Below, in pieces: positions 1 through 15,296 of a stretch of DNA of 64,000 bases (position 1 is the stretch's first letter; each line of letters opens with the position of its first letter). The stretch comes from Stachybotrys elegans (Eukaryota > Ascomycota > Sordariomycetes > Hypocreales > Stachybotryaceae), in assembly GCA_020746835.1 (NCBI GenBank), contig JAGPNK010000005.1, positions 310,001 through 374,000 on the forward strand, written 5' to 3'. The notes beneath the pieces were generated by a model that saw nothing but the letters and a program-made list of their open reading frames with translations, did no database searches and was not told where the DNA came from. Made by a program: the position numbers and the translations under genes.

Positions 1-247
1 GCGTACATCATCCGACTGGGATCCGGCCCAAAGATCGTTCTCCACATCACGGCGGCCTTTCAAGGCCCTCGGTTACTTATGGACGTTAGCCTGGCTTGTG
101 TGGTCGACGCCCGTTTGGATATATCCATCTCTCCAACGGAGCACTGGCGTGGCAATCATCCCAATCTCGGGCTATTTCCAATGGGCTCTGATTACCGGAT
201 CGCAAACACTAGCTGGCCCATCAGAGTTGGCTCTTTTGTGTAGTTAA
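1..247 (+). CDS. C-terminal end of wax-synthase-like membrane O-acyltransferase (partial)
   Basis: An open frame enters from the left edge (frame beginning at base 2) and stops with TAA at 245-247. It encodes about 81 residues. It reads WDPAQRSFSTSRRPF, then GYLWTLAWLVWSTPVWIYP, and ends about 30 residues later. The GYLW..AW..WS.P.W pattern is the C-terminal transmembrane segment typical of fungal wax-synthase-domain acyltransferases, which acylate hydroxyl groups of terpenoids and meroterpenoids. This is recognition from a short tail, so the family call is moderate. The neighbouring triterpene glycoside genes make an acetyltransferase a sensible cluster member, since related fungal triterpene glycosides are O-acetylated. 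The start and the HxxxD-type active site would lie outside the window. Confidence 0.5.
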   Translation, partial: RTSSDWDPAQRSFSTSRRPFKALGYLWTLAWLVWSTPVWIYPSLQRSTGVAIIPISGYFQWALITGSQTLAGPSELALLCS

Positions 248-928
248 GATGGAAGGGGGAACAAAGTGCTAGCTTTGCTTTTATGAGCCAAGCGACTCCC
301 TTGGCGGCTTCTCTACAACGGCTTTGGCTAGATGAAAGTTCGGGCTAGATGTACCGTAGAAGCTTGGATATTTGAAAATGGGCAACAATTGAAACCCTCA
401 TACCCGGAGACATTGCCGAGACCTCTGTGTATTGTTCTGTCATCCCTACTCTGGCTCGCATACGATGACGAGGAGGGGTTGATCAGCATGGCTATGATAG
501 GTAGAGTGGCCGTAGCGAAATGGACTGAAGTTTCTATTGAGCAACTTCATCACGGGCCGCGAAACTCTAATCACAGGAGCCATCTTTCCTATATCCCAGA
601 CGACTGCAGCACTGCCTTCATCGCTAGATGAGCACCAGATGCCAATATCCGCAGGCAGCCTCCATTATCGGTCTGATGAATCTGTAGACATCGACATGCA
701 AGTTCGTCGTCTCCTAGTTCTGTCGGCCATGATCCCACGAGCGTGCGGTTGTAATCTTCCTTCTGCTAAGAGAATTGATGAAAAGCTAGGATTTGAAACA
801 ATGTCACCGCGACGGGATACGCCTTATGCGTGTCAACCTTTTCGGTTATCTATTGATTTGACACTGTTTTTACTCTCCAGGAGATCCTTCCTCAAGTCAA
901 CAATATCCGTAATATTAATTTCTAGAAA
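248..928. other. Intergenic, no supportable gene
   Basis: Two overlapping open frames of 99 and 134 codons occur here, but their translations match no family I recognise and show no domain, signal peptide or coding-like composition. It is probably the shared 3' region between the edge gene and the kinase-like gene, which converge. Confidence 0.5.
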
Positions 929-1711
929 CTACCACCCATAAGCATGATATCTTGCTGCAAGAGCCATCGCTCGCATCGACTTTGAGGGCTTGGGTCCAAA
1001 AAGCTGTTGATGCAAACCTTTTGCAAATTTTTGCCCTATGAGGTTGTATTGGTGAATAAGAGCGAATTCGTCAAAGGCACGAGGATAAATTCCAGCAAAG
1101 CCCCAGTCAAGGATAGTTATTCGGTCGCTAACCATGATGTTGAACTGGGTAAGATCACAGTGGCATAAACATAGCTGCTCTCCTTGAAATGAAACCCTAT
1201 CCTGATAGTCCCCTTCCGTCAACTTGGTATTAATCCAGACTTCTAGCTCCACGAGGGTGTTGAAGATCTGCCCGGATCCGCTATCCGAGAAGAATCTATC
1301 AACAGGTTCCTGCTGACAAAAGGGGCCAGGAGAAAGATTAGGCGGCAGTGGGATATCCCAGATATGGCGAACAGCATTTGCGATGGCTGTGAGTGCTTCT
1401 TCGGCTTCCCGTGGATTCTTGGTTCGATGTGTGGCATAATCGTCGGCCTTCACAATTTCCATGACAATATATGTTATAGGCGGAGCGTTTAGCCGTGTGG
1501 TCGAAAATTCGTCGAAAACTTCCGGAACGTGGACAATACGAGGATCGACGTTGTTATGCACATATCTCTGGATCGCTGCTTCTGCCAACGTTACTCCCTC
1601 GCCATACTTGATCCAGATCTCATCGCTGTATGCAAATCCGTTTGACTTTGGTCCGTTCTCCTTGCAGAGGGCTTCAACAACATCGCGCTTGGGTATCTGA
1701 GGTCGAGGCAT
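929..1711 (-). CDS. APH/choline-kinase-fold phosphotransferase family protein
   Basis: A single-exon gene of 260 residues from ATG at 1711. The core shows the aminoglycoside-phosphotransferase/kinase-like signature: a catalytic loop HCDLTQFN (H-x-D-x4-N, near residues 186-193) followed by the metal-binding ILDWGFAG (the DFG-equivalent Asp, near residue 202). An upstream ITYIVMEIV segment fits the hinge between lobes. Fungal genomes carry many such genes, and most have no known substrate. They probably phosphorylate small molecules, or act as pseudo-kinases. The protein is about average length for the family and lacks a signal peptide, so it is expected to be cytosolic. It sits between the putative acyltransferase and the first P450 of the triterpene locus. 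Membership of that pathway is possible but not shown by the sequence. Confidence 0.75.
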   Translation of the reverse strand: MPRPQIPKRDVVEALCKENGPKSNGFAYSDEIWIKYGEGVTLAEAAIQRYVHNNVDPRIVHVPEVFDEFSTTRLNAPPITYIVMEIVKADDYATHRTKNPREAEEALTAIANAVRHIWDIPLPPNLSPGPFCQQEPVDRFFSDSGSGQIFNTLVELEVWINTKLTEGDYQDRVSFQGEQLCLCHCDLTQFNIMVSDRITILDWGFAGIYPRAFDEFALIHQYNLIGQKFAKGLHQQLFGPKPSKSMRAMALAARYHAYGW

Positions 1712-1754
1712 CTTTCCAGCTAAGGTTGAGTAAGTAGTTGCATCAGGTAATGTG

Positions 1755-1954
1755 GAATTTCTCGATCGTGTGCCCCAATGGGATATAGACGAGTGATTGG
1801 GACTCTGACGATAAAGACAGTATCAAATCAATAAATGACACTTAGTTGGAAAATTCGATTGAGAAAAGCTTGTAGCTGTGGCTAATGTCAAATCTTTTTA
1901 GCCACCTCCATAGCGCAATTGGTCGGGAACTTCCCTCACCAAGCCGCCGTGGCT
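1755..1954 (+). repeat. Dispersed repeat family R1, copy 1
   Basis: About 200 bp beginning GAATTTCTCGATCGTGTGCC and ending near CCGCCGTGGC. The same block, diverged mostly by C/T and G/A changes, recurs near 11.8, 18.9, 26.5 and (reversed) 50.4 kb. No open frame or clear terminal inverted repeat is visible. It lies between the kinase-like gene and the first P450. Confidence 0.7.
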
Positions 1955-2239
1955 TGCATCAGGTAATTATGACCAAGAAATGATTCCAACATTTGTATTT
2001 CCCTGAGAAGATCTGGTTGAAAATAGGCGCCGAGACCCTGGTTTAATGGCAAAAAGGCCGGCTGCGGTGCGTCACCAGTCAATAAACCCTCTTTTTCAGT
2101 GGGTGCAAGAGGCTAGCTTGCAGCAACCATGCCAAGTTTCTTAGTAGGCAACTAGCCTTGGTTAGATAGGTGTATAGTCAACGCCATTCAAAAAGTCACG
2201 ACAATACATCGAATGTAAATCTCTTATGACTACTGATAA

Positions 2240-4085
2240 CTAATGCTGAGAAGGAACGACATTCCTTCTACGAACCCTTATGCTAGACGACAGCGGCGGC
2301 AGTGCTGCATCTCCGATAACACTTGTCTTTGGCGGAGGCGTGGTAGCTTCAACATCGTAACGAAGAAGAAGGTGCGCCAATAATGTCTTCATCATTAGAA
2401 CGGCAAACCACCGACCGGGGCTTCAGATTTTCGTCAATACTCAGGAACAACAGTCCAGATGGTCAAGAGAGGGGAAAGGGCTTCTTACCACGCATGTCGT
2501 CCATATCCAAATCCTAAATACTCAACACCAGGTCGTGCAGCATCATATTCACTTGTCGTTGTACGCTGATCGCCTGATGCGTTCTTCTCAACGTCCAGTT
2601 TTAACTTGAGGAACCGGTATGGATCATATGTCGAGGATTTAGGATAAAATCGTTCATCCCGATGAATGCCAACTACCGGAACTCCCACCCAGGAGCCGCG
2701 TGGAAGGAGGGTACCATTGGGCAACTTTAGACCGTCCGGATCAATCACTTCTTTTGTTAGACCTTTGATTAGGATGGGGTGACATCTTAGGCTCTCTCGA
2801 ATAGCGCTGTCGTATAGGACTAGCTTGTGAAATGCTGTACTTGTGCTCCAGTCGTCCTCGGTTTTCAGGACGCTCTCGGCTTCATCGCGGAGTGCTTGAA
2901 CGAGACCCAATTCAGAATCACAGTGCAGGATGTCAAGCAAGCTATTCGAAATCTGGATGACCGTGGAAGACATTGCGGCGAATCCCTGTACCGCAATCGT
3001 TAGGACCGTCCCAATTCAGCTTCTTCACAGAAGCTAAGAGTAGATTTCATTATCTTACCGCAAGCATAAGCCACTCAGCCAGGATTTGGGGATCTTTGGC
3101 AGATGACAGATTGGCCGACTTTGCCGATACTCTGGCACACTGCGAGACGAAACTAACTTCCTGGCTTCTCCCGTCGCTCTCTGAAAGCTGTTGCTCAACT
3201 TCCGGAACTAGCTTGTGTAAAGTCGTTGATCTGTAGTAGCGCAGGGGTAAATTGAACAAAGGTACGAAAAGACTCTTGAGGAATTTGGGCAGCTCTCCAA
3301 TTACAATTGTTCCCACCCCCATAGCGAGCATGTAACGTTCAAAGGATTTCAGAAAGGATACATCCCGACTCAAAGGCAAACCAAAGAAGACCCGTGTCAT
3401 AACGGGCAAAATGAGCTTCTGGAAGGAATCATATACTTTGATAGTCCTCCACTCATCAGATGCCACACCGTCCGCTTCAAACATTTGATCGAACTGGCGC
3501 ACAATTTCTTCGCGCATCGGTCCTTGGATGGTGTCAAGGTTTCGTGTCAAGCTGTCACGAATAATTCTCTCGAGGAAGAATAGTGTGGAATCAAATTCGA
3601 CACCAACGTGCAAATATCCCACAGCATGTCTCTCTTCTCGTATGGTTCTACTCGACATTTTCGAGTCTGGCTGGCTCGAAAACCACTTGATATGCTCTGG
3701 CGGAAGTAGAATCTCCTGTTGGAAACTAGGCTCGTGTACTATGAATGGTAGGCCATTACGGGAGTACTTGAAGTGGCCCAGGCTGTCAATACAATTTACA
3801 CTCGTGGCCATGCCAAGAATTCGGTTGACGCACCTGATTGTATCCACTTAGCAATGTGTTCATGCCCTGCGTAAGCTGGCGAAGAGAAGCTCGGGTAGCT
3901 TTGAACCACTCATCATGAACAACGATGGCAGGGATTGCATCGGCGCGGTTGTTGACTGACAATGACTTCTTGTCATGCTGAGAATATGAAGGAAATGGGG
4001 TGAATATGACACGAAACAGAAGCCATAAAATCACGGGGCATGCAAGGTAAAAACCCCAAAATTGCATCAAACTGTTGTAAGGCAT
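2240..4085 (-). CDS. Cytochrome P450 monooxygenase (triterpene locus, P450-1)
   Basis: Four exons on the minus strand: 4085-3834, 3766-3059, 2985-2489 and 2420-2240, with introns of 67, 73 and 68 bp. They give 545 residues. All introns have GT..AG ends and keep frame. The N-terminus (PYNSLMQFWGFYLACPVILW) is a membrane anchor, placing the enzyme on the ER. The I-helix region is LAGFAAMSST near residue 320, the ExxR motif is E384-S-L-R387, and the haem loop is FGYGRHACPGR with Cys486. The last intron splits the haem-cysteine codon. The gene is divergent from the cyclase-glycosyltransferase across 862 bp that probably holds shared control elements. By context it should hydroxylate or further oxidise the triterpene scaffold. 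The exact position of oxidation cannot be told from sequence. Confidence 0.9.
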
Positions 4086-4947
4086 CTCGATGGTATTCTA
4101 TACAAGCATCTCTTTGCTCAAGGCTGTAAAACTTTCCAAGAGATGATGGTAGGGACCTTAAACAGCAAAGTACTTCAGACTCCATGTTCCTGCCTTTCGT
4201 TACTTGCATGAAGCCACATCCAATGACTTCACTTCACTTAATGACTATGTGGTTTTTCTACTTAAACTACTTGGTTGCTGTCCAATATCTCCCATCTCGT
4301 TCCCATGTCGGCCAAACTCCCAGAAAGGGAACATGCAGCGCTTACCGCAGGAGAACCAGCCAATGTCCCGCTTTACAGGATTCGCTACTCCGTCCTTGCG
4401 CGGATATCTGATGCATGTAACCCCAAAACCAAAAACGATACATGTTCCATAATCATCAACGTCAGCTTATCAGGAGCAAGTCGTTCATGCATCTGCACAG
4501 TGAATCCTGCTCTGGGAGGGAAGCATGAAGCTAAAACTAAAGCAGAACATACCCGAACCCATGACTCAAGCAATGCATACCCCATTGGTTGCCGCTGGAT
4601 GCCGACTGATAATGATGTCGCAGCTGACAAGTGTGATGTGAGAGCAACGTATGCGCACTGGCTGAAATGTATCCGAAGTGGCGTTTGGAGGAACACGCAA
4701 TCAGTCGGGCAAGGTAGAATCGCACCAAGCAGAAACTTGATTCAAGGTGGGACTTGGGCGAAGGAGCGAAGGCCGATTCTGTCAGACTGAGGTTTTACAC
4801 GTTATCGACAGAGTCGTCCATCAGTGATATGGATTGGCGGGCTGGACAATGGCACTGGCCTGTACAGGGAGATAAAGACTGCAGTATGTCCAGCGTATCA
4901 AATGAGGGCTGGCATTTCTTGGTCTATTGTATACCAGTCTAGCCGAT
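4086..4947. promoter_or_regulatory. Divergent intergenic region between P450-1 and cyclase-glycosyltransferase
   Basis: This 862-bp stretch separates the divergent start codons of P450-1 and the fusion cyclase. Overlapping open frames of up to 171 codons occur but have no recognisable product. The arrangement suggests a bidirectional promoter for the two pathway genes. I could not identify a specific regulator site with confidence. Confidence 0.45.
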
Positions 4948-7900
4948 ATGGAAGAAGATCAACTCCAGCGATTGGCCTGCCGGGCCGTAGAGAATGCAGC
5001 CGCATACTCTTTTGATTGTCAGAAAGCCGATGGCCACTGGGTAGCCGAAGTTTCGTCCGATGCGACTTTCACATCGGAATACGTTATGTTCAAGCATGCC
5101 TTAGGCCTGGACCTTAAGGCAGATGCAGATGCTCTCCGTCAATGGCTTTTACAGGATCAAAAGCCGGATGGCTCGTGGGGCCTCGCGCCTGAGCTGCCCG
5201 GTAACGTCTCGACGACCACGGAAGCATACTTGGCGTTGAAAATATTGGGAGTGTCGTCTCAAGACCCAGCCATGCTGCGTTCCAGAGACTTCATGATAAA
5301 GAACGGCGGAGTAGCCAAAGTGCGCTTCTTTACCCGGTTCTTTCTCGCCACCTTTGGTCTGTTCCCGTGGAGTGCCATCCCTCAGGTGAGCAAACTCATT
5401 TCAATTTGATCACTTCACCAATACATCCGCCTTTGGATGGTGCAGTAACAAGGGGCCAGTGATTGAGTTCTAAGATACTGACATTGCTGTGCCACCAGCT
5501 ACCGGCCGAGCTCATCCTCATGCCGCCTTCCTCGCCCTTGAACATTTACATACTATCTTCGTGGGCAAGAAGCACACTGATACCCATCCTGATTGTGGAT
5601 CATCACCAGCCCGTATATGCCTTGCCAAATGGCCTTAGTACGGAAAACAACTTCCTAGACGAGATCTGGGTAGATCCAAGCAACAAAAACATTCCATATG
5701 CACCACCTCTCTCTACCTTATGGCGAGAGGGAAGCTATGTCGAGTTTGGATTTACCTTCATTGATAAGATGATTGCAAATCTAGGAAATGGGCTTAGAGA
5801 TTTTAAGCCCCTAAGAGCCTATTCACGCAAGAAGTGCATCGACTGGCTGCTTGAGCATCAAGAAGAAGCCGGTGACTGGGCTGGTTTCTTTCCGCCCATG
5901 CACGGTAGTTTATGGGCTCTAGTTCTTGAAGGATACCCTCTTGATTCAAAGCCTGTGAGCTTAGGGTTCGCTGCGATGGAGCGTCTGGCCATGGAAGACT
6001 CCAAGGGCAAAAGGATCGCCGCAACAGTTTCACCAGTGTGGGACACGGCCTTGATGGCTAGCGCATTGTGCGACGCAGGAGAAAGCCATGACTCCCGCGT
6101 TCAAAGAGCTGCTGAATGGATCAAGGCCAAACAACTCAATGATCCGACAAGAGGAGACTGGCGCATATACTGCCCCGTCAAGCAGGCTGGTGGATGGAGT
6201 TTTGAGTACGATAACACCTGGTATCCTGATGTAGACGATACCGCGGTTGTGGTCATGGCTCTTTTGAAGCAAGATGCTGATGGTATGATTGGATCCAAAT
6301 CCATTGCGGATGCAGTCGAATGGATGATTGGCATGCAGAACCCCGATGGAGGCTGGGCCGCCTTCGACCACGGCAACGACAAGCTTTGGCTTCACAAGAT
6401 TCCGTTCAGCGACATGGACAGTCTCTGTGATCCTAGCTCATCCGATATCACTGGACGTATCATCGAGTGCTTTGGGTTCCTGCTCTCCCACCACAAAGGT
6501 CATCATATTGATCCAGATCTCCGCGGAAAGATGAACGATGCTTCATGGCGAGCTGTGACTTACCTCTTGAAAGAGCAAGAAGCTCCCAACAGCGCATGGT
6601 GGGGCCGTTGGGGCAACAATTACATCTATGGTTCCAGCAACGTGCTCAGAGGCTTGGAACACTTTGCCAAGAGCAGTACCCAAGTTCAGCAGTCAGTCAG
6701 TCGAGCCATACAGTGGTTTGAGTCCATCCAGAATGATGACGGTGGATGGGGCGAGACCTTGAAGTCGTATACCGAGCCTGATCTGGCTGGCCGCGGCGTC
6801 AGCACTGCTGCACAGACTGCCTGGGCTATCCAAGCTCTGTTGCCATATCATCCGCCCTCACGCCCAAGCATTCGCAGAGGAATCCACTGGCTCGTGACTC
6901 ATCAGAGCATCCAGTCAGCTCATGGTGCATCCTGGCCATGGGATGTATACACGGGGACTGGATTCCCAAAGGTCCTTTACTTGGGTTACCCTTATTATCA
7001 CCATGCATTTCCCATCATGGCGCTGAGCAAGTATATCGAAGCCGTGGATTTGGAAACATCGAGCACTGGCTGTGCCATTGAACTTGCACTAGAGTGTATT
7101 GATACCTTGAACCGGCCCAACGTTCTGTTGATGGTTGTTGGCAGCCGTGGCGACATCCAGCCCTTTCTTCGGATAGCCGGTCTACTGCAGAAGAAGCACA
7201 ATTGCCACGTCCGAGTTGCGACACATGACTCTCACCGGGAGCACGTAGAGCGCAAGGGACTAGAGTTCTACTCTGTAGGTGGTAGCCCAGAGGTATTCGC
7301 CAAAGTCTTGAGGGAGAGGCCGAATATCATTGCTTCGTTCCTGAATGGAGAGTTCACGGCCCTTCAACAAGCATTTCATCTCATGATGGAGAAGTTTTGG
7401 TTTGCGGCCATCGACCGCCCCAGCCCGACTGAAACCTCACTTGATTCAAAAACTGCAATCAGCGGATCATGGAATCGCCTCTTTGTGGCTGATGCTATTG
7501 GCTCTAACCCACCAACACAATCTCATATCCATGCTGCAGAGAGTCTCAACGTCCCATTGACGCTTGTTTCGATTCAGCCAGAACTACCCACCGCTGATTA
7601 CCCTCACTACATGACCATGACCAAGCCCGCGCTCCAATCTGCGCCTTGGTGGAACCTCATGACCTATTGGGGCATCCAAGCAATGTAAGTCTGCTCCATA
7701 GTGGTCATTGCTCCGTACTCACCGATTTCGCAGGAACTCTCTCGCCTTTGGTTCTTTCCTGAATCGGCTTCGTGTCAACAACTATGGAATGCAGCCACGT
7801 CCCTGGGCGCAGACGCTTTTCAAACCTCAGGCTGTAGGCGTGCCACACGCTTGTTTGTGGTCATCCCAAGTGCTTCCAAAATCGACAGAGTGGAACGAGC

Positions 7901-8937
7901 TTGTAGAGGTTGTCGGCTACACCTTCCCTGAAGACGATGTGGACTATGTGCCACCAAGAAGCCTGGAAAGCTTCCTTGATACAGACCAACCAGTTCTAGC
8001 AATTGGATTTGGATCCATGGTTGTTCCACATCCCAACAAGACAATCTCTATCATCACTGAAGCTGTCGGAAGACTTGGTGCCAAAGCCGTTATTTGCGGT
8101 GTCTGGCCCAAAGCCGCAACGGAAATGTTATCAACCTCGGATGATGTTTATTTCATTCAGGATGTTCCACATGCTTGGCTTCTCCGACATGTTCAAGGGT
8201 TCGTCCACCATGGCGGCGCCGGACATACGGCCGCTGGGATCAAAGCTGGCGTTCCGATGCTCGTTCTTCCTTTCTTCCTCGATCAAAACTTTTGGGCTGC
8301 CAAGGTTTGCCAGATGAAACTTGGGCCTCCGCCAATCCCGTTTCATAATTTGACGGAAGAGATCTTGGTGGCGTCTCTACGGAAACTCTTGCTACCAGGA
8401 CAGTACACAGAACGTTCCAAAGATCTATCCTGTAAGCTCCACGGCGAACAGGATGGCAGTGAAGTGGTGGCAGGTATGCTTGCCGCACAGGCCAAGCAGT
8501 CAGGCGTCGCTCTTTGTAGCTTGATCCCGGCGTTGAAAGCTCCATGGTGTCACAAGACTAGTGGCCTCCGACTTTCCGGGGTCGCAGCCGCCTCGCTTGT
8601 ATCCCAGGGCGTCTTACACTGGTCGGATCTACAGCTAAATGGTAGGCCAGACCACAAAGCAGCCTCTTCGACTGTTGCAAAGCCACGCATTTTAAGCCTT
8701 TTGTGGTTGTTTGTTGGGCTGTACCATCTCCTCATTAGGTTGCTAATTGCCATATTAAGATTGGAACATGACCAGAGCAACAAGGTAGAGAACCCAGTCT
8801 TCCAGGCGAGGATCAGGCAGAGTGAGGATGACTTGGCCTGGGTTGAAGGGCAAGAGTCTGGTGGTGACGTGCAGAAACATGTTGGAAGGGCGTGGCAAGT
8901 GAAATCCTCCAGAGCCTTCCAGAACAAGTTCAAATAG
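4948..8937 (+). CDS. Terpene cyclase-glycosyltransferase fusion (squalene-hopene cyclase type + UGT), EfuA-like
   Basis: Three exons, 4948-5385, 5499-7684 and 7734-8937, encode 1275 residues. ATG 4948 was chosen because the short in-frame extension to 4927 begins with TTG. Residues 1 to about 680 form a class II triterpene cyclase. The protonating DxDD motif is D390-V-D-D393, and several QW-type repeats are visible (QKADGHW, QKPDGSW, QNPDGGWAAF, QNDDGGWGET). Residues from about 687 form a glycosyltransferase resembling sterol 3-beta-glucosyltransferases: the N-terminal GSRGDIQPFLR sugar-acceptor motif and the donor-binding VHHGGAGHTAAG at about 1032-1043. A hydrophobic helix near 1196-1217 may anchor the C-terminus. 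EfuA from Hormonema carpetanum, the enfumafungin synthase, has this same two-domain plan. The expected reaction is cyclisation of squalene or oxidosqualene, then transfer of glucose to the product. Skeleton type and sugar site are inference. The gene is divergent from one P450 and followed by another. Confidence 0.93.
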
Positions 8938-9591
8938 TTACTCTAGCTAGGCATCCTATAATAATAGCCTAAAGTACGCTTGTAGGCATTGATTTACACC
9001 AAAGTTGGCACAGATGGACTATGTGTCAGTCTCAAGACGAGGCTCTAGGCCTTTCAGACCTTCTACCCCATCAAGACCTCCACATGAGATTTATGGTTCG
9101 CAGCATCATGTCGCGGGCTTGAATATCTCCGATATGTCCTTTGTCACTACTTGTTGCGTTTTCCGAACCACACTTTATTCCGTTAGCCGGGTGAGATAAT
9201 GGTTGTGTCATGCAACCCTCTCGGTCTTGCTTGATAATGCAGTAAGCAGCAGGAGGTGTGAGTGATTTACCAGTTTATCCGTTTTCTGGTTTTGGATATC
9301 GCCGAAAGTCGTCATTATTGAAGCAGTGTCCTGCATGTAAGATTCCTACAGGATTGTACTTCCACGGCAGACTTGTAGCCTCTACGTACCAGTACTTGTT
9401 CATGCAAGGGAACAATTGATGTAGTCACAGGAATACCGTCCACTGGAAGCCGTGTGGCGACTTGTCAGCTGACTTTCGGTTGGTCTGATATGTAGCCAAT
9501 TTGATCGCTTTGAATTCACATGCCCATTAACTGGAGCTTCACCTTTTTGCCACCTATTCCCTGAGCCATTGTGTGCTCTAAACGTACAAAC
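8938..9591. other. Intergenic, no gene seen; probable promoter of P450-2
   Basis: Only a 64-codon open frame without recognisable features occurs. The stretch should contain the cyclase-glycosyltransferase 3' end and the upstream region of the second P450. Confidence 0.5.
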
Positions 9592-11601
9592 ATGGATCCT
9601 CCTCGCTACGAAGACTTTCAGAATGCAGCAAATAAGATTTATATGGTGCTCTTCACAGTTCTCATCGTCGTGCTGGGGAACCTAGGGCTTAGGCTTCTGT
9701 CATTTTATCGGGTGCGCGCAAGATTTCCAGCAGTCGACAGCGGCTTGACAAAATCAATTTTTGATGCCGAACCGCTCTATCGCGAAGGGTATCGTAAATT
9801 CAAGAATTCGATTTACAGAGTCACTACCGCGGATGGTGCGTCCATCAAAGTCATGTCCGCCGCACAGAGCTTTCATAACCGATGAATGTCTAGGAGACCG
9901 ATTGATGATTCCCAATTCCTACTTCAATGAATTGTATCAGATACTAGAAAAGGATCCATACGCTACGGACAAAGCGCAGGCCATTGTAAGCAGCCCCAAA
10001 CCGATCTTTGGCTGTGTGCCTCGTTAATGATATGACCCAGACACTAGAGGCGAAACATACCGGTCTCTCCGTGTCAAGGTTCATGATCCACACCATCTTT
10101 ACAGACTTGACTCGAAACTTAGGTAGGCAGGGCTGCTTGCTGTTTTGCCTTTCCCCAATTCACGACAGGGTCTAACTGTGTCGTCATAGGACGGATCCAT
10201 GAGACTTTGTCGAATGCCATAGATGAAGCAGTCGAGACTGAGATATCCACTTCTGGATCAGTTAACCCAGCGAACGAATGGACAACGGTAATCATCGACG
10301 AGTCCCTGGCACGCATTGTAGCCATTGCCTCTGGGACTGTCTTCATTGGGCATAACGCAGCTAGGCGAAGGGAATGGCTCGATGCTGCTGCTAACTTTAC
10401 CACCACCGCTTTCATTGCACGCTTCCTGATCAAATGGTGGCCAGCACCTTTGCGCGGCATAGTCAGTCCCTTTTTGCCACATGTTTGGAGCGTACGAAGG
10501 CAGAGACGCGACGCGCTTAAGTTTTTGGTGCCAATCGTTGAACTGAGAAGAACAATGATCAAGAGCGGAGAAGAAGTGCCCAACGATATGTTGCAGTGGA
10601 TGTTGAACAAGCACGACTTTGAGGATTCCCAGAATGACGCGGAAATTGCCAATCAGTTGCTCCAGCTCACATGGGTAGCTCTCCATACGGCCTCCTTGAC
10701 AGCCACTTCCATGTATGTCCTACCTGTTACTCCCCGAAGAGTTGTTTTACAATTCAGTCGAAGCCATGAAGGGATTCGACCGTACTAATTCGACAAATCT
10801 CTGTTACTAGACTATACGACCTTCTTCTCCATGGGGGTACAGTCATAGAGGAACTGCGTGAAGAGATAAACACAACCTTACAAGAGCATGGAGGCAAATT
10901 TTCAGTATCCTCGCTGTCACAGCTTAAACTGCTTGACAGTGTGATGAAAGAGTCCCAAAGAATGCACCCGCTTGGGCTGAGTATGTCTCCATCCTTGAGT
11001 TTGTGTCTGTTAGTCCGCTCAGGTGCAATCACTAATAGAAATTTTTGCTTAGCACGTTATGTTCGCTATGTCAAAGATCCCATTCAGTTGCACGACGGGA
11101 GGACGGTTCCATCTGGATCCATAGTCGAAGTCCCTCACATTGCTCAACTTCGCGACGAAGCCAATTACCCAGAAGCAGAGGCACGTATCTCTTTGCTATT
11201 ACTATTTCTGGATCCATACTATTTAGACGCAGTTAAAGGCACAGCATCTTCGTTTGGAATGACTGAGTCGTGATCTGGCGCTAACTGCTGGGCAGAAATT
11301 CGATCCATATAGATATTACCAATTTCGCACCGGCGCACGCCCTGATCCGTTTGATTACAATAACAAGGACCAACACCAGTTCGCGACAGCCACGCGTGAG
11401 AACCTTACATGGGGCTACGGTCAGCACGCTTGCCCGGGCCGCTTTTTTGCCTCCAACGAGATCAAGCTTATCCTGGCGCGCGTTCTGACTACTTTCGATC
11501 TGAAACTGCCAGAGGGGATGACGGCTAAAGAGATTCAGGACTATTTCACACCAAACACTATGCTGGTGAGAAGAATAGGAGTCCTGGGAGACAACAGCTA
11601 A
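9592..11601 (+). CDS. Cytochrome P450 monooxygenase (triterpene locus, P450-2)
   Basis: Seven exons give 514 residues: 9592-9835, 9894-9985, 10041-10122, 10190-10712, 10811-10980, 11053-11180 and 11296-11601. An N-terminal helix (MVLFTVLIVVLGNLGLRLL) anchors the protein in the ER. The motif ITTADG-equivalent VTTADGDRLMIPNSYFNEL spans intron 1. ExxR is E361-S-Q-R364, and the haem loop is WGYGQHACPGR with Cys459. Five introns are GT..AG. The sixth is best read as a GC..AG intron (donor GAG|GCACGT, acceptor GGGCAG|AAATTC), because only that choice joins YPEAE to KFDPYRYY in frame. The gene follows the cyclase-glycosyltransferase in the same direction and is intron-rich compared with P450-1, so it is not a recent duplicate of it. 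Probable role: oxidation of the triterpene glycoside or its aglycone. Confidence 0.88.
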
Positions 11602-11797
11602 AGAAGCAATGGCCTGTATATGCAACGGTCCTGATTAATATAGTTCTAGGCCGTGTGGCTGATGTAGATCGGTGGTTAGACGTCTCAATAGTGATGTGTG
11701 ATAGACATTGCCACCTCTTTAGCATAATGATTCTCAGGTTTCTCTTGTCAACGTACAAGGTGCAGGATACGGTTGGCAGTGTTAGGCATGCATGTGT

Positions 11798-12325
11798 GAT
11801 TTCCCATTTGTGTGCCCCAATGAGATACAGACCAGTGACTTTGAGGAGGCACCCTTTGACTATAAAGATAATACTAGATCAATAGATAGCAATTCGTTAG
11901 ACAACTTGATTGAGAAAAACCTGTAACTGTAGTGGTGCTGGTGTTAAAAATTTCTAGCTACATACTGCAATTGGTTGGGAACTTCTGTCATGATGCTGCC
12001 GTCGTGTTAGGCGAGAGAAGGCTTCTGTAGAGATGGCTTCTGCCGCAGGGTCCATATATACGATGTGGCTTCAGCGAGTTTTGCAGTTAGGTCTGCCGTA
12101 GCGTAGACAGCTTGTTCTGGGAGACTTGATTGAGGCTGCTGTTGATGATGCGATATCAAGGTTTTCTATAAAAAATAGCTTCCAGTGACTTGATCCACTA
12201 CCGGCTTGATGGCTTTCGCGGGTGACTGGATTAAAGTTGCTGCTGCTGCGAGAAAACTTTGTTGAGCCTGCTGCCTAATAACCTGTTGGGGCTTCGATGT
12301 CTACAAGATACGCTCTCTGCTTTTC
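11798..12325 (+). repeat. Dispersed repeat family R1, copy 2 (longest copy)
   Basis: The first 210 bp match copies 1 and 3 (CCATTTGTGTGCCCCAATGA onward). The far end, around 12283-12325 (GGGGCTTCGATGTCTACAAG), is shared with copy 5 at 50.38-50.42 kb. Copy 5 joins the two ends directly, so the element is probably about 530 bp in full and copy 5 is internally deleted. No coding capacity is seen. It starts about 200 bp after P450-2 and may mark the right edge of the triterpene locus. Confidence 0.6.
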
Positions 12326-12675
12326 TCCAGGACAGAACGATCTCATCATCAACCACAACCTCTGCTATTACCTCGCTCCTATCTGTTCAATCAAACTACG
12401 CAGACCGGCATACCTCCCATATCAAGAACAGGTCCTGTATTGTATTCATCGGGTCCAAGCAAGATTAATCTTCCCTCTGTCTGTTTCATTGGCCAAGTTA
12501 TGGATGGGGCCCAGTATTGTTGGTGATGCACAAAGCCGAAACTCAGCCCCTCAGCACTGCCCCTGCTTGTGGGACAGCCCCAGGTCAGTCCATCACAGGA
12601 CTCGGCTCTGAACTAACAAAATTCGATCTCCCTTAACAGTCTGGCATCGATTCCTTTCCATGCTCGTTTTTTAGT

Positions 12676-13686
12676 ATGGAGCTCTTTAGCCTTCCTCCTG
12701 AAGTGCTGAGAGAAATCATCGATTGTGTTGGCCCGTCTTTTTTCCGCGAAGACTTGGGTCGCTTTACAGTATGCAAGCAGTGGTTCCAGTTCGCCTGCTT
12801 AACCTCCTTCAAATCCATTACCTTGTCCTCAGAGACTTTGCGGGCTTTGGTCTCGTCTGGGACTCCTGAAAGCCAATCTCTGATTGAAAGCGCGTTAAAA
12901 ACCTTGAGCCTCGAGCTGACAGGGCATCCATCGTCGACCTCAACAAGTCCTTCATCAGAGGACGTGCGCCCGAACACGACAGGCGGGGATGATCTTACTG
13001 AAGACCTCCACTGGCTTGCAGCGCTGATCGAGCGCTCCAGCAGGCTCCGTGAATTACGCATAGAGGCCAGGAGGTCTTTGGAGCCTCAGCCATCCTCTGG
13101 TATCCCAGAGGGCTATCTCTCGATACATACGATGCAAGCCCTACTCTGTGCGGACAATATCAGCACTCTCGTTATCGACCTATCTGCGGGCACTTTGGAG
13201 AATTCGTCAAACGAACAAAGTGGCATCAATCATCTTTGTCCTCTCATCAGCGCGTTCCTGCCTACTCTCAGAACTCTACACGTACGCATGCCAAGAGTTT
13301 GTTCCGAACTCCTGAAGTGCCCGGCCACTGAGAAAGTCCCACGCCTCACGACCGTGGTTGTCAATTTAAGCTTAAATATTATTCAACCGGGCATCACATC
13401 AGCCAGCCATTCGAAGAGCTGCTATTCTTCAGGTGGCAGTTTACTTCAGCTGAAGGAGGATATAACAACACAAGCGGAGACTCTGGCAACTCAAGTGAAA
13501 TCTATCAAAATTTTGAGGGTTTTGACTCACTCTCTCCCAACCTTCAAGATAGAGTCTCTGGATGTCTTGACTGGAAAGACTATGAGATTGAAAGACGGTA
13601 TGGCATGGGACGATGATGGCACTGTTATTGAGGAATCTGAACCCGAGTCCGAGTTCTCTAGCGACGACGATTTCTCAGCTTTCTAA
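12676..13686 (+). CDS. F-box domain protein
   Basis: An intronless 336-residue gene. Residues 1-45 (MELFSLPPEVLREIIDCVGP followed by RFTVCKQWFQFACLTSFKSI) fit an F-box, LPxEvLxxIi...l...s.VCKxWr, which binds Skp1 in SCF ubiquitin ligases. The remainder is leucine-rich and helical with no repeat I can define. The C-terminus is acidic (EESEPESEF..DDDF). The substrate is unknown. Many fungal F-box genes are lineage-specific and fast evolving. The flanks are a dispersed repeat upstream and a non-coding stretch downstream, with no clue to function from neighbours. Confidence 0.75.
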   Translation: MELFSLPPEVLREIIDCVGPSFFREDLGRFTVCKQWFQFACLTSFKSITLSSETLRALVSSGTPESQSLIESALKTLSLELTGHPSSTSTSPSSEDVRPNTTGGDDLTEDLHWLAALIERSSRLRELRIEARRSLEPQPSSGIPEGYLSIHTMQALLCADNISTLVIDLSAGTLENSSNEQSGINHLCPLISAFLPTLRTLHVRMPRVCSELLKCPATEKVPRLTTVVVNLSLNIIQPGITSASHSKSCYSSGGSLLQLKEDITTQAETLATQVKSIKILRVLTHSLPTFKIESLDVLTGKTMRLKDGMAWDDDGTVIEESEPESEFSSDDDFSAF

Positions 13687-14339
13687 ACATGGTATATCCG
13701 ACTAGATATGGACGAAACCAGACGATTAGACTGATCCTCATATCATCAATATTTCAACTTTATATTCCTTTGCTTTGCTCTGAATATCGGAGGGTGTGGT
13801 GGAGGTCGCTAGCCGCAGGCGGATAAACTGCGAAGAAGAGTAGGAAGAGTAGGAAGAGTAGCAGCCCAAAAGCTGAGGAAAGAGAAGGGCGGGAGACAGA
13901 GGAATGAATTGAGATAGCAACAAGTGCCTTTGTTATAGGTCATACTGTTGCATTTACAACTGCAACATGCTCCTGTACAAAAGTTCCCGGATCCCGAATT
14001 ATTTACCTCAAGATTGAGATCAGACGCGCGCATGTTTGTCGGGACCACAGTCCATGGTCAACATTGCAGGATGCAGGTTCTTACCAATCAACGCTGTGTA
14101 TTGGGTGAATGGAGGAGAATGGAGATACTGGTTCCGTGTTATGGCGGACAAATAATTTTCCTACATGCACGTCGTCTTTGATAGGAATCACGGAAGAAAT
14201 GTCTTTGGCACTTTGGTCAGTAAGCACCTCGCATGACCCTGGCCTGGTAATTGAGTACATATTGCTGGCGAAACACGTACTACCGTGTCTTGCGACTGGA
14301 GCCTTCAACTACTAGCCTTTCTTTGTGGGTTTATGAGAA
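13687..14339. other. Intergenic with short purine-rich tandem repeat
   Basis: No gene is supported. At about 13839-13861 a small tandem array of the unit AGTAGGAAG occurs, and the rest is unremarkable. It includes the promoter of the GH62 gene. Confidence 0.5.
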
Positions 14340-15296
14340 ATGAGATTCTTCAAAATTACTCTGCTGTTGGCATCAGCCACAGGAGCACTCTCTTCGTGCC
14401 CGCTGCCTGCAACTTATAACTGGACATCGACTGGAATCCTTGCGGAACCCAAAAATGGTATCGTCGCCCTCAGAGATCCTACCCACGTCATGTACAAGGG
14501 TAAACACCTCGTCTACGCAACAACCTTGGGCTACGATCGCACTTGGGGGACGGTTGTTTTTGATCCCTTCTCGGACTGGTCTCAGATGGGCTCGGTGAAC
14601 CAAACCACACTGACGCCGTATGCTATTGCCCCTAGCCTGTTCTTCTTTCGTCCGAAAGGAATATGGGTCATGGCGTACCAATGGAGCCGAACACCGTTCT
14701 CGTACAAAACGTCTAATGACCCGACCGATTTGAATGGCTGGTCATCGGAACAGGTGCTGTTTACTGGCACGATAACGAACTCAGCCACAGGCCCAATGCA
14801 CCCGGCTCTGATTGGCGACGATAAGAGCATGTACTTGTTCTTCTGCGCAGACAATGGTTCCCTCTACAGGGCGAGCATGCCCATCGGGAACTTTCCGGGG
14901 AGCTTCGGTGCAACATCGACGGTAGTCATTAAGGACGTCACGCGTCTGGTATTCGAAGCCGTCCAGGTCTACAAAATTGCACAAGACAAGTACCTGCTTA
15001 TCGTCGAGGCTATTGGTACCCAAGGTCGCTTCTTCCGCTCCTTTACGGCTACCAGCCTTGACGGCACGTGGACTCCACAAGCATCTACAGAAGCGAACCC
15101 TTTTGCTGGCAGGCTTAATAACAATGCGACATGGACCAAAGATGTTAGCCAGGGCGAGCTAATTCGAAGCAACCCTGACCAGACCATGACGATCGACCCC
15201 TGTAATCTACAGTTTTTCTACCAGGGAAGCCTGCCGGACCACCCGGAATTCAATTTGATTCCCTATCGATTCGGTGTGTTGACTCCGAAGTGGTAG
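14340..15296 (+). CDS. GH62 alpha-L-arabinofuranosidase, secreted
   Basis: An intronless 318-residue gene. The N-terminus (MRFFKITLLLASATGALS) is a signal peptide, so the enzyme is secreted. The mature chain begins CPLPATYNWTSTG, and the catalytic-domain hallmarks of GH62 follow: ALRDPTHVMYKGKHLVYATT with the conserved early Asp, WVMAYQWSRTPFSY, GPMHPALIGDDKSMYLFF and VFEAVQVYKIAQDKYLLIVEAIGTQGRFFRS. The length is that of the single GH62 domain with no cellulose-binding module. Family members remove arabinose side chains from arabinoxylan during plant cell-wall breakdown. Several N-glycosylation sequons are present, for example NWT, NQT and NAT. It is not linked functionally to the neighbouring F-box gene. 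Confidence in the family is high. Substrate preference is inferred from the family. Confidence 0.93.
   Translation: MRFFKITLLLASATGALSSCPLPATYNWTSTGILAEPKNGIVALRDPTHVMYKGKHLVYATTLGYDRTWGTVVFDPFSDWSQMGSVNQTTLTPYAIAPSLFFFRPKGIWVMAYQWSRTPFSYKTSNDPTDLNGWSSEQVLFTGTITNSATGPMHPALIGDDKSMYLFFCADNGSLYRASMPIGNFPGSFGATSTVVIKDVTRLVFEAVQVYKIAQDKYLLIVEAIGTQGRFFRSFTATSLDGTWTPQASTEANPFAGRLNNNATWTKDVSQGELIRSNPDQTMTIDPCNLQFFYQGSLPDHPEFNLIPYRFGVLTPKW

What the first reader, a model, noticed from the sequence alone, without database searches (positions are those of the whole stretch)
1..11601. Enfumafungin-type triterpene glycoside locus in a new gene arrangement
Seen: a squalene-hopene-cyclase-type domain fused to a UGT domain, with a P450 on each side and an acyltransferase-like tail at the window edge. 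Known: EfuA is a cyclase-glycosyltransferase making enfumafungin-type products, and very few such fusions are characterised. Inference: this locus makes a glycosylated, oxidised and probably O-acylated triterpene, possibly with glucan-synthase-inhibiting antifungal activity. The product is unknown, and the set of genes here (a divergent P450, a co-directional P450) could define a distinct compound.
Basis: partly seen in the sequence, partly recalled or inferred. Interest (0 to 1): 0.9.

Follow-up and report, generated by a model that had tools for sequence, protein, structure and literature searches.

The report
Enfumafungin-type triterpene glycoside gene cluster
A mould that parasitises other fungi carries a gene cluster of the kind that makes enfumafungin, the natural parent of the antifungal drug ibrexafungerp; it is a new member of a known family rather than something new in kind.

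Summary
The window is Stachybotrys elegans. At 4948-8937 one three-exon gene encodes a 1275-aa squalene-hopene-cyclase-type cyclase (DVDD intact) fused to a sterol-type glucosyltransferase; exon 2 alone runs from one domain into the other without a stop. P450 genes flank it, and the acyltransferase tail ends a complete MBOAT gene that starts 1.1 kb left of the window. A third P450 (P450a) lies further left: 10 of its 41 non-self hits lie on the same contig as a listed hit of the cyclase search; the same test gave 0 of 119 listed hits for a neighbouring 2OG oxygenase. The gene classes match the four-gene set reported sufficient for fuscoatroside, plus one P450. Best reading: it makes a 2-O-acetylated, 3-O-glucosylated, E-ring-oxidised fernane-type triterpenoid, plausibly a glucan-synthase inhibitor; product and activity are inferred. 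'Very few such fusions' is not borne out: 76 of 119 listed relatives are fused. No sequence labelled EfuA or FsoA was seen, so fernenol and isomotiol cannot be told apart, and tailoring-gene orthology is argued by class. New member of a known kind.

The parts
1..247 (+). 3' end of an MBOAT-type O-acyltransferase gene; the gene starts at L005 8864 (1137 bases left of the window), 2 exons, 440 aa; proposed 2-O-acetyltransferase
   Evidence: gene model; Pfam MBOAT_2 81 bits
929..1711 (-). APH-type phosphotransferase (kinase-like) gene, 260 aa, single exon; membership of the pathway unknown
   Evidence: APH 47 bits
2240..4085 (-). P450b, 4 exons (3834-4085, 3059-3766, 2489-2985, 2240-2420), 545 aa
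   Evidence: Pfam p450 115 bits; 78% identical over 413 aa to the first half of P0242 of Paramyrothecium foliicola
4948..8937 (+). terpene cyclase - glycosyltransferase fusion (TC-GT), 3 exons, 1275 aa; cyclase Pfam stretches residues 14-658, transferase residues 688-1121
9592..11601 (+). P450c, 7 exons, 514 aa; the last intron needs a GC-AG splice, so this model is the least certain
   Evidence: Pfam p450 150 bits
1750..1945 (.). copy of a dispersed repeat (40 matches scored of 389 first-look candidates in the genome); not part of the pathway
11792..11930 (.). second copy of the same repeat (75-81% identical, same orientation) just right of P450c

Best explanation
This is a Stachybotrys elegans biosynthetic gene cluster of the enfumafungin/fuscoatroside (efu/fso) kind, running from the third P450 left of the window (L005 6227) to window 11601. 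Proposed route, by analogy with the published pathway: (1) the TC domain cyclises 2,3-oxidosqualene with its DVDD acid to a fernane-type pentacyclic alcohol (fernenol or isomotiol; not resolved); (2) one P450 hydroxylates C2; (3) the MBOAT acetylates the 2-OH; (4) the GT half of the same fusion protein then glucosylates the 3-OH, so the two domains of one protein act at non-consecutive steps; (5) a second P450 oxidises and cleaves ring E; (6) the third P450 adds an oxidation that the minimal fuscoatroside pathway does not need. Shown here: gene structures, domain classes, intact DxDD, a fusion spanned by one exon, and a partnership of the fusion with P450a in other fungi. Inferred from the published pathway: the order and site of every reaction. 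Inferred with less support: that the product inhibits beta-1,3-glucan synthase and serves as an antifungal.
For: TC-GT Pfam domains; solved-structure relatives: cyclase half nearest squalene-hopene cyclase (E 1.8e-121), GT half nearest fungal sterol 3-beta-glucosyltransferase (E 2.9e-35), which fits a 3-OH glucosylation. Fusion aligned over its full length at 71% with Paramyrothecium foliicola and at 46-64% with 14 other listed proteins. In a tree of 119 cyclase rows the window's lies in an 86-row group that holds all 76 fused rows of the tree, next to Paramyrothecium. DxDD intact here and in 118 of 118 relatives examined. P450a: 42 hits at E<=1e-20 of 7993 scored; 10 of 41 non-self hits share their contig length with a listed hit of the cyclase search, 9 of these being fusions; the same test for the 2OG oxygenase gave 0 of 119 listed non-self hits. 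Literature: EfuA/FsoA, EfuH2/FsoD, EfuG/FsoE, EfuH1/FsoF and the reaction order (PMC12667498, parts 1-3 of 5 read); fsoA/D/E/F sufficient for fuscoatroside (PMC12299000, passage); a Hypoxylon rubiginosum cluster with the same core set (PMC8403587, passages).
Against: No sequence labelled EfuA, FsoA or their tailoring enzymes was seen, so orthology is argued by class and partnership, not by direct comparison. Membership of MBOAT, P450b and P450c rests mainly on position and class; no protein search was left for them. The contig test also has misses: in Haloplaca sp. 1 the P450a hit (P0260) and the cyclase hit (P0039) carry distant names and different contig lengths, and the Hypoxylon rubiginosum pair (P0243, P0008) does not match in length. 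No transcript or metabolite data. The S. elegans metabolome paper (passages, PMC4413796) reports trichothecenes and atranones and holds no word beginning 'terpen' or 'triterpen'. No second glucan synthase gene as a self-protection copy (1 match in the genome, on another contig).
Confidence: 0.78

Rival explanations
1. The cluster also includes the 2OG-Fe(II) oxygenase that starts 6.7 kb left of the window and therefore makes an enfumafungin proper, with a C24-C25 hemiacetal as made by EfuI.
For: An Fe(II)/alpha-KG oxygenase (EfuI) converts the seco-E-ring intermediate into enfumafungin in vitro (PMC12667498); a 2OG oxygenase with DIOX_N and 2OG-FeII_Oxy domains sits at L005 3307-4397.
Against: None of its 119 listed non-self relatives (of 150 at E<=0.001) shares a contig length with the listed cyclase hits; its nearest solved relatives are the 2OG oxygenases TraH, TropC and SpoC, which I recall as polyketide-linked; fragments of a broken polyketide synthase (PKS_DH_N, PS-DH) lie next to it; a VHL-domain gene lies between it and P450a. 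EfuI itself could not be compared.
Confidence: 0.2
2. The cluster makes a fernane-type glycoside without E-ring cleavage (peniciside- or kolokoside-like), with weak or no glucan-synthase activity.
For: A fungal fernane glycoside with hydroxyls at C-19 and C-20, peniciside, is known (PMC11371599, passage); none of the three P450s was shown to be the E-ring enzyme; two lichen proteins join a P450a homolog to a P450 only 26-28% like P450b.
Against: Three P450s are present, one more than the set reported sufficient for fuscoatroside; P450a is a partner of the fusion in other fungi.
Confidence: 0.25
3. The fusion makes a hopane-type triterpene glycoside, as a bacterial-type squalene-hopene cyclase would.
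For: The best solved-structure relative is squalene-hopene cyclase, with DxDD intact.
Against: Lies among the fungal TC-GT fusions. Aligned to the bacterial enzyme, H451 is Arg here and in 117 of 118 fungal relatives, Y420 is Phe here and in 118 of 118, F605 is Leu here and in 66 of 75 fused rows. The first two changes are shared by all or nearly all unfused fungal relatives too, whose products are not known here, so they separate it from the bacterial enzyme but do not by themselves show a fernane product.
Confidence: 0.05
4. The cluster is silent or decaying: genes intact but not producing.
For: A broken SHC-type fragment exists elsewhere in the genome (C34) and PKS fragments lie on the left edge; copies of a dispersed repeat flank the core.
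Against: The five core reading frames are open under the gene models and the fusion is 71% identical to Paramyrothecium foliicola over its whole length.
Confidence: 0.15

Closest known systems
enfumafungin cluster (efu) of Hormonema carpetanum, EfuA
   Same: SHC-type cyclase with DxDD fused to a sterol-type glycosyltransferase; three P450s and an acetyltransferase by class (papers)
   Different: efu includes the Fe(II)/alpha-KG oxygenase EfuI; the 2OG oxygenase here is unlikely to be its counterpart. No direct sequence comparison was possible.
fuscoatroside cluster (fso) of Humicola fuscoatra, FsoA/D/E/F
   Same: TC-GT, acetyltransferase and three P450s (fsoB/D/E) by class; the four-gene set reported as sufficient is matched by class
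   Different: a counterpart of the glucose oxidase gene fsoC was not searched for; skeleton (isomotiol or fernenol) unknown here
TC-GT locus of Paramyrothecium foliicola (same family)
   Same: fusion 71% identical over full length (84% over the cyclase columns of the tree); homologs of P450b (78%) and P450a (75%) on a contig of the same length
   Different: the two P450s are annotated there as one 940-aa protein, so they are neighbours or merged by the annotation, whereas here the MBOAT and APH genes lie between them; the rest of that locus could not be read
fernane glycoside cluster of Hypoxylon rubiginosum
   Same: TC-GT (64% over 875 aligned columns) with two P450s and an acetyltransferase as core
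   Different: has an O-methyltransferase and FAD-dependent enzymes according to PMC8403587 (passage)
polytolypin cluster (PolA)
   Same: fernane-type cyclase and three P450s (passages)
   Different: polytolypin is unglycosylated (passage); no GT is mentioned in the passages seen

Membership tests
EfuA/FsoA-type TC-GT synthase | SHC-type cyclase N and C domains with DxDD | tested here: met
   both Pfam domains; DVDD aligned to D374/D376/D377 of the bacterial enzyme
EfuA/FsoA-type TC-GT synthase | GT domain of fungal sterol-glucosyltransferase type in the same polypeptide | tested here: met
   exon 2 spans both domains; nearest solved structure of that half is sterol 3-beta-glucosyltransferase. 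No RNA evidence.
EfuA/FsoA-type TC-GT synthase | groups with TC-GT fusions, not with unfused fungal cyclases | tested here: met
   the smallest well-supported sets around it (2 and 6 rows) are all fused; the 86-row group that holds all 76 fused rows also holds 10 unfused ones, and the fused label needs 5 changes on the tree (shuffled mean 35.2). Quick tree, no bootstrap, midpoint root.
EfuA/FsoA-type TC-GT synthase | direct sequence relationship to EfuA and FsoA themselves | not tested
EfuA/FsoA-type TC-GT synthase | makes fernenol or isomotiol from 2,3-oxidosqualene and glucosylates the 3-OH of the 2-O-acetylated alcohol | not testable with these tools
   needs expression
efu/fso-type gene cluster | at least two P450 genes and an acetyltransferase gene beside the fusion | tested here: met
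   three P450s and an MBOAT by class; function and orthology not shown
efu/fso-type gene cluster | my own criterion, not from the literature: a neighbour P450 that travels with the fusion in other fungi | tested here: met
   P450a: 10 of 41 non-self hits share the contig with a listed cyclase hit, 9 of them fused; misses in Haloplaca sp. 1 and Hypoxylon rubiginosum
efu cluster proper | EfuI-type Fe(II)/alpha-KG oxygenase | tested here: inconclusive
   a 2OG oxygenase starts 6.7 kb left but shows no partnership with fusions (0 of 119 listed); EfuI sequence not seen
fso cluster proper | glucose oxidase gene fsoC | not tested
   no search for it was made
bacterial squalene-hopene cyclase | His at position 451 (partner of the catalytic Asp; role recalled) | tested here: not met
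   Arg here and in 117 of 118 fungal relatives

The most novel reading that the evidence does not exclude
A mycoparasitic fungus makes its own enfumafungin-type glucan-synthase inhibitor, with an oxidation pattern not found in enfumafungin or fuscoatroside (third P450, possibly the 2OG oxygenase), and uses it against the cell wall of the fungi it parasitises.
Probability: 0.2. Interest if true: 0.6.

Novelty: new member of a known kind. Interest (0 to 1): 0.36.

Why it matters
Enfumafungin is the parent of ibrexafungerp, and native EfuA gave little fernenol and no detectable glucoside in Aspergillus oryzae (PMC12667498), so further natural fusions and tailoring enzymes are useful parts. This locus comes from a mycoparasite, where a cell-wall-synthesis inhibitor would have an obvious ecological role. 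It also gives a full-length model for a fusion that is truncated in the public annotation.

Tried and rejected
Rejected: two separate genes for cyclase and transferase (exon 2 is one open frame across both). Rejected as leading reading: a hopene-type product. Doubted: the 2OG oxygenase as EfuI counterpart. Looked for and not found: a second glucan synthase gene (1 match in the genome, on C1). One search looked in that gene for fixed hot-spot motifs and found none; one search printed the protein, where the first hot-spot-like stretch begins with Tyr against Phe in yeast (yeast letter recalled); this cannot be told from ordinary variation in related moulds and was dropped as evidence for self-protection. 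The two flanking repeat copies looked like a boundary signal but belong to a dispersed family. Right flank: only the frames 12637-13686 (no Pfam match) and 14337-15296 (GH62) were scanned to 15.3 kb, and two further right (amidase, alpha/beta hydrolase); smaller frames were not scanned. Left flank: a lectin-like frame under its cut-off, an inositol-monophosphatase-type gene and three frames without match; L007 was read by eye only, L008 and L009 were fetched and not examined.

Limits of the counts. One search lists the best 120 of 8000 scored relatives, so 76 of 119 is a count among the nearest ones; fused means at least 100 aligned residues of the transferase half (75 in the tree plus P0021, which has 489 cyclase residues and was left out of the tree and the residue counts, as was P0001, the window's own). 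The contig test rests on exact equality of the longest-contig lengths typed into. Searches of print: (listings); no listed paper shows hits both for Stachybotrys elegans, Stachybotryaceae or Paramyrothecium and for enfumafungin, fernane or triterpen; one search listed 15 of 47 and 15 of 359, in an open-access library only. Kuhnert 2018 was not held and Cao 2024 was not looked up; what I say of them comes from later papers.
Full report
What is there. The window belongs to Stachybotrys elegans, a mycoparasitic mould (Hypocreales, Stachybotryaceae): the cyclase search returned a deposited S. elegans protein 100% identical on a contig of 2461291 bases, the length of contig C45 in which the window lies. 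The genome was searchable, so the left flank could be read (L005 = C45:300001-310000; window base 1 = C45:310001).

Gene models, from left to right: 2OG-Fe(II) oxygenase (L005 3307-4397, +, 341 aa); VHL-domain protein (L005 5478-6128, +, 216 aa); P450a (L005 6227-8074, -, 574 aa); MBOAT acyltransferase (L005 8864 to window 247, +, 440 aa); APH-type phosphotransferase (929-1711, -, 260 aa); P450b (2240-4085, -, 545 aa); TC-GT fusion (4948-8937, +, 1275 aa); P450c (9592-11601, +, 514 aa). Pfam supports each class above its cut-off, the VHL match only narrowly (23.7 against 21 bits). Two models are identical to deposited proteins: the 2OG oxygenase and P450a. The P450c model needs one GC-AG intron and is the least certain.

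The fusion. Exon 2 (5499-7684) is one open frame that runs from the cyclase through the linker into the N-terminal part of the transferase, so the two domains are one polypeptide unless RNA shows otherwise. A 49-base intron follows; the deposited S. elegans protein (875 aa) ends at it and loses the rest of the transferase, while the Paramyrothecium foliicola protein is annotated at 1271 aa and aligns over the whole model at 71% identity. By comparison with solved structures the cyclase half is nearest to squalene-hopene cyclase and the transferase half to fungal sterol 3-beta-glucosyltransferase, which is what a review reports for EfuA from Kuhnert 2018 (PMC11371599, passage).

Relatives. Of the 119 other listed relatives (best 120 of 8000 scored), 76 carry at least 100 aligned residues of the transferase and 43 do not. 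The tree has 119 rows: the window's cyclase, 75 fused and 43 unfused relatives. All 76 fused rows (the window's included) lie in a group of 86 that also holds 10 unfused ones, 7 of these in an Apiospora group; the label fused needs 5 changes on the tree against a shuffled mean of 35.2. The window's cyclase pairs with Paramyrothecium (SH-aLRT 97) and sits in a 23-row group with Hypoxylon and Apiospora. The tree is a quick one without bootstrap, rooted at the midpoint, and no row is labelled EfuA or FsoA. Catalytic residues on a MAFFT alignment: DxDD is intact in 118 of 118 relatives; H451 of the bacterial enzyme is Arg here and in 117 of 118; F605 is Leu here, in 66 of 75 fused rows and in 13 of 43 unfused rows. 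What these changes do is not tested here, and the Arg does not separate fused from unfused relatives.

Which neighbours belong. A protein search with P450a gave 42 hits at E<=1e-20 among 7993 scored. Misses: Haloplaca sp. 1 and Hypoxylon rubiginosum have hits in both lists that do not match in contig length. The same comparison for the 2OG oxygenase gave 0 of 119 listed non-self hits. So P450a is a recurrent partner and the 2OG oxygenase is not shown to be one. In Paramyrothecium a single annotated protein (P0242) is P450b-like (78% over 413 aa) and then P450a-like (75% over 426 aa), so homologs of both lie side by side or were merged by the annotation. The MBOAT and P450c are assigned by class and position only.

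How it probably works. The published work, of which I read parts 1-3 of 5 (PMC12667498), shows for FsoA and an EfuA-FsoA hybrid that cyclisation is followed by C2 hydroxylation (FsoD), 2-O-acetylation (FsoF), and only then 3-O-glucosylation by the GT half of the same protein; for the enfumafungin-type intermediate it shows that E-ring cleavage (FsoE) needs the glucoside. A review passage states that fsoA, fsoD, fsoE and fsoF suffice for fuscoatroside (PMC12299000). The S. elegans locus holds these classes: TC-GT, MBOAT and three P450s. I therefore propose the same order here. Which P450 does which step cannot be told; P450a, as the recurrent partner, I guess to be the C2 hydroxylase or the E-ring enzyme. 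A hemiacetal as in enfumafungin would need an EfuI-like oxygenase, for which evidence is weak.

What is against it. No direct comparison with EfuA or FsoA; no transcripts or metabolites. A metabolomics paper on S. elegans attacking Rhizoctonia solani (passages, 12 of 16 places shown) reports trichothecenes and atranones and has no word beginning 'terpen' or 'triterpen'. The genome has one glucan synthase match, not in the cluster, so there is no duplicated target as self-protection.

Verdict. It is a new member of a known kind, of moderate interest because of the drug link and the mycoparasitic host.

Noticed in passing
hits P0248/P0030, P0252/P0017, P0259/P0026, P0265/P0016: Four fungi that I recall as lichen-forming Teloschistaceae carry the TC-GT fusion with a P450a homolog one or two names away, suggesting enfumafungin-type pathways in lichens.
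   Followed up: partly
L010 3140-4708 and 4743-5255 (C6): An oxidosqualene-cyclase-type paralog in which the usual DCTAE acid motif (recalled) reads ECAAE, close to a carrier-protein-like frame of a polyketide synthase (by eye, no Pfam run).
   Followed up: no
L012 3668-4237 (C34): A fragment of another SHC-type cyclase with DVDD, apparently a remnant; a 2OG oxygenase 53% identical to the one beside the window lies on a contig of the same length (P0148).
   Followed up: partly
L005 1122-2198: Fragments of a polyketide synthase dehydratase region beside the 2OG oxygenase: probably the remains of a different cluster.
   Followed up: partly
window 1750-1945 and 11792-11930: Two copies of a dispersed repeat flank the core 10 kb in the same orientation; 40 matches scored of 389 candidates genome-wide, one about 1.2 kb from the C6 cyclase match.
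   Followed up: partly
hits P0077, P0079, P0081, P0082 (Xylaria): Xylaria cyclases whose annotated transferase part aligns only at its start and at its end, either mis-annotated or internally shortened.
   Followed up: no
window 929-1711: An APH-type phosphotransferase gene sits between the acyltransferase and P450b; role unknown.
   Followed up: no
L005 5478-6128: A 216-aa protein with a marginal VHL beta domain match between the 2OG oxygenase and P450a.
   Followed up: no
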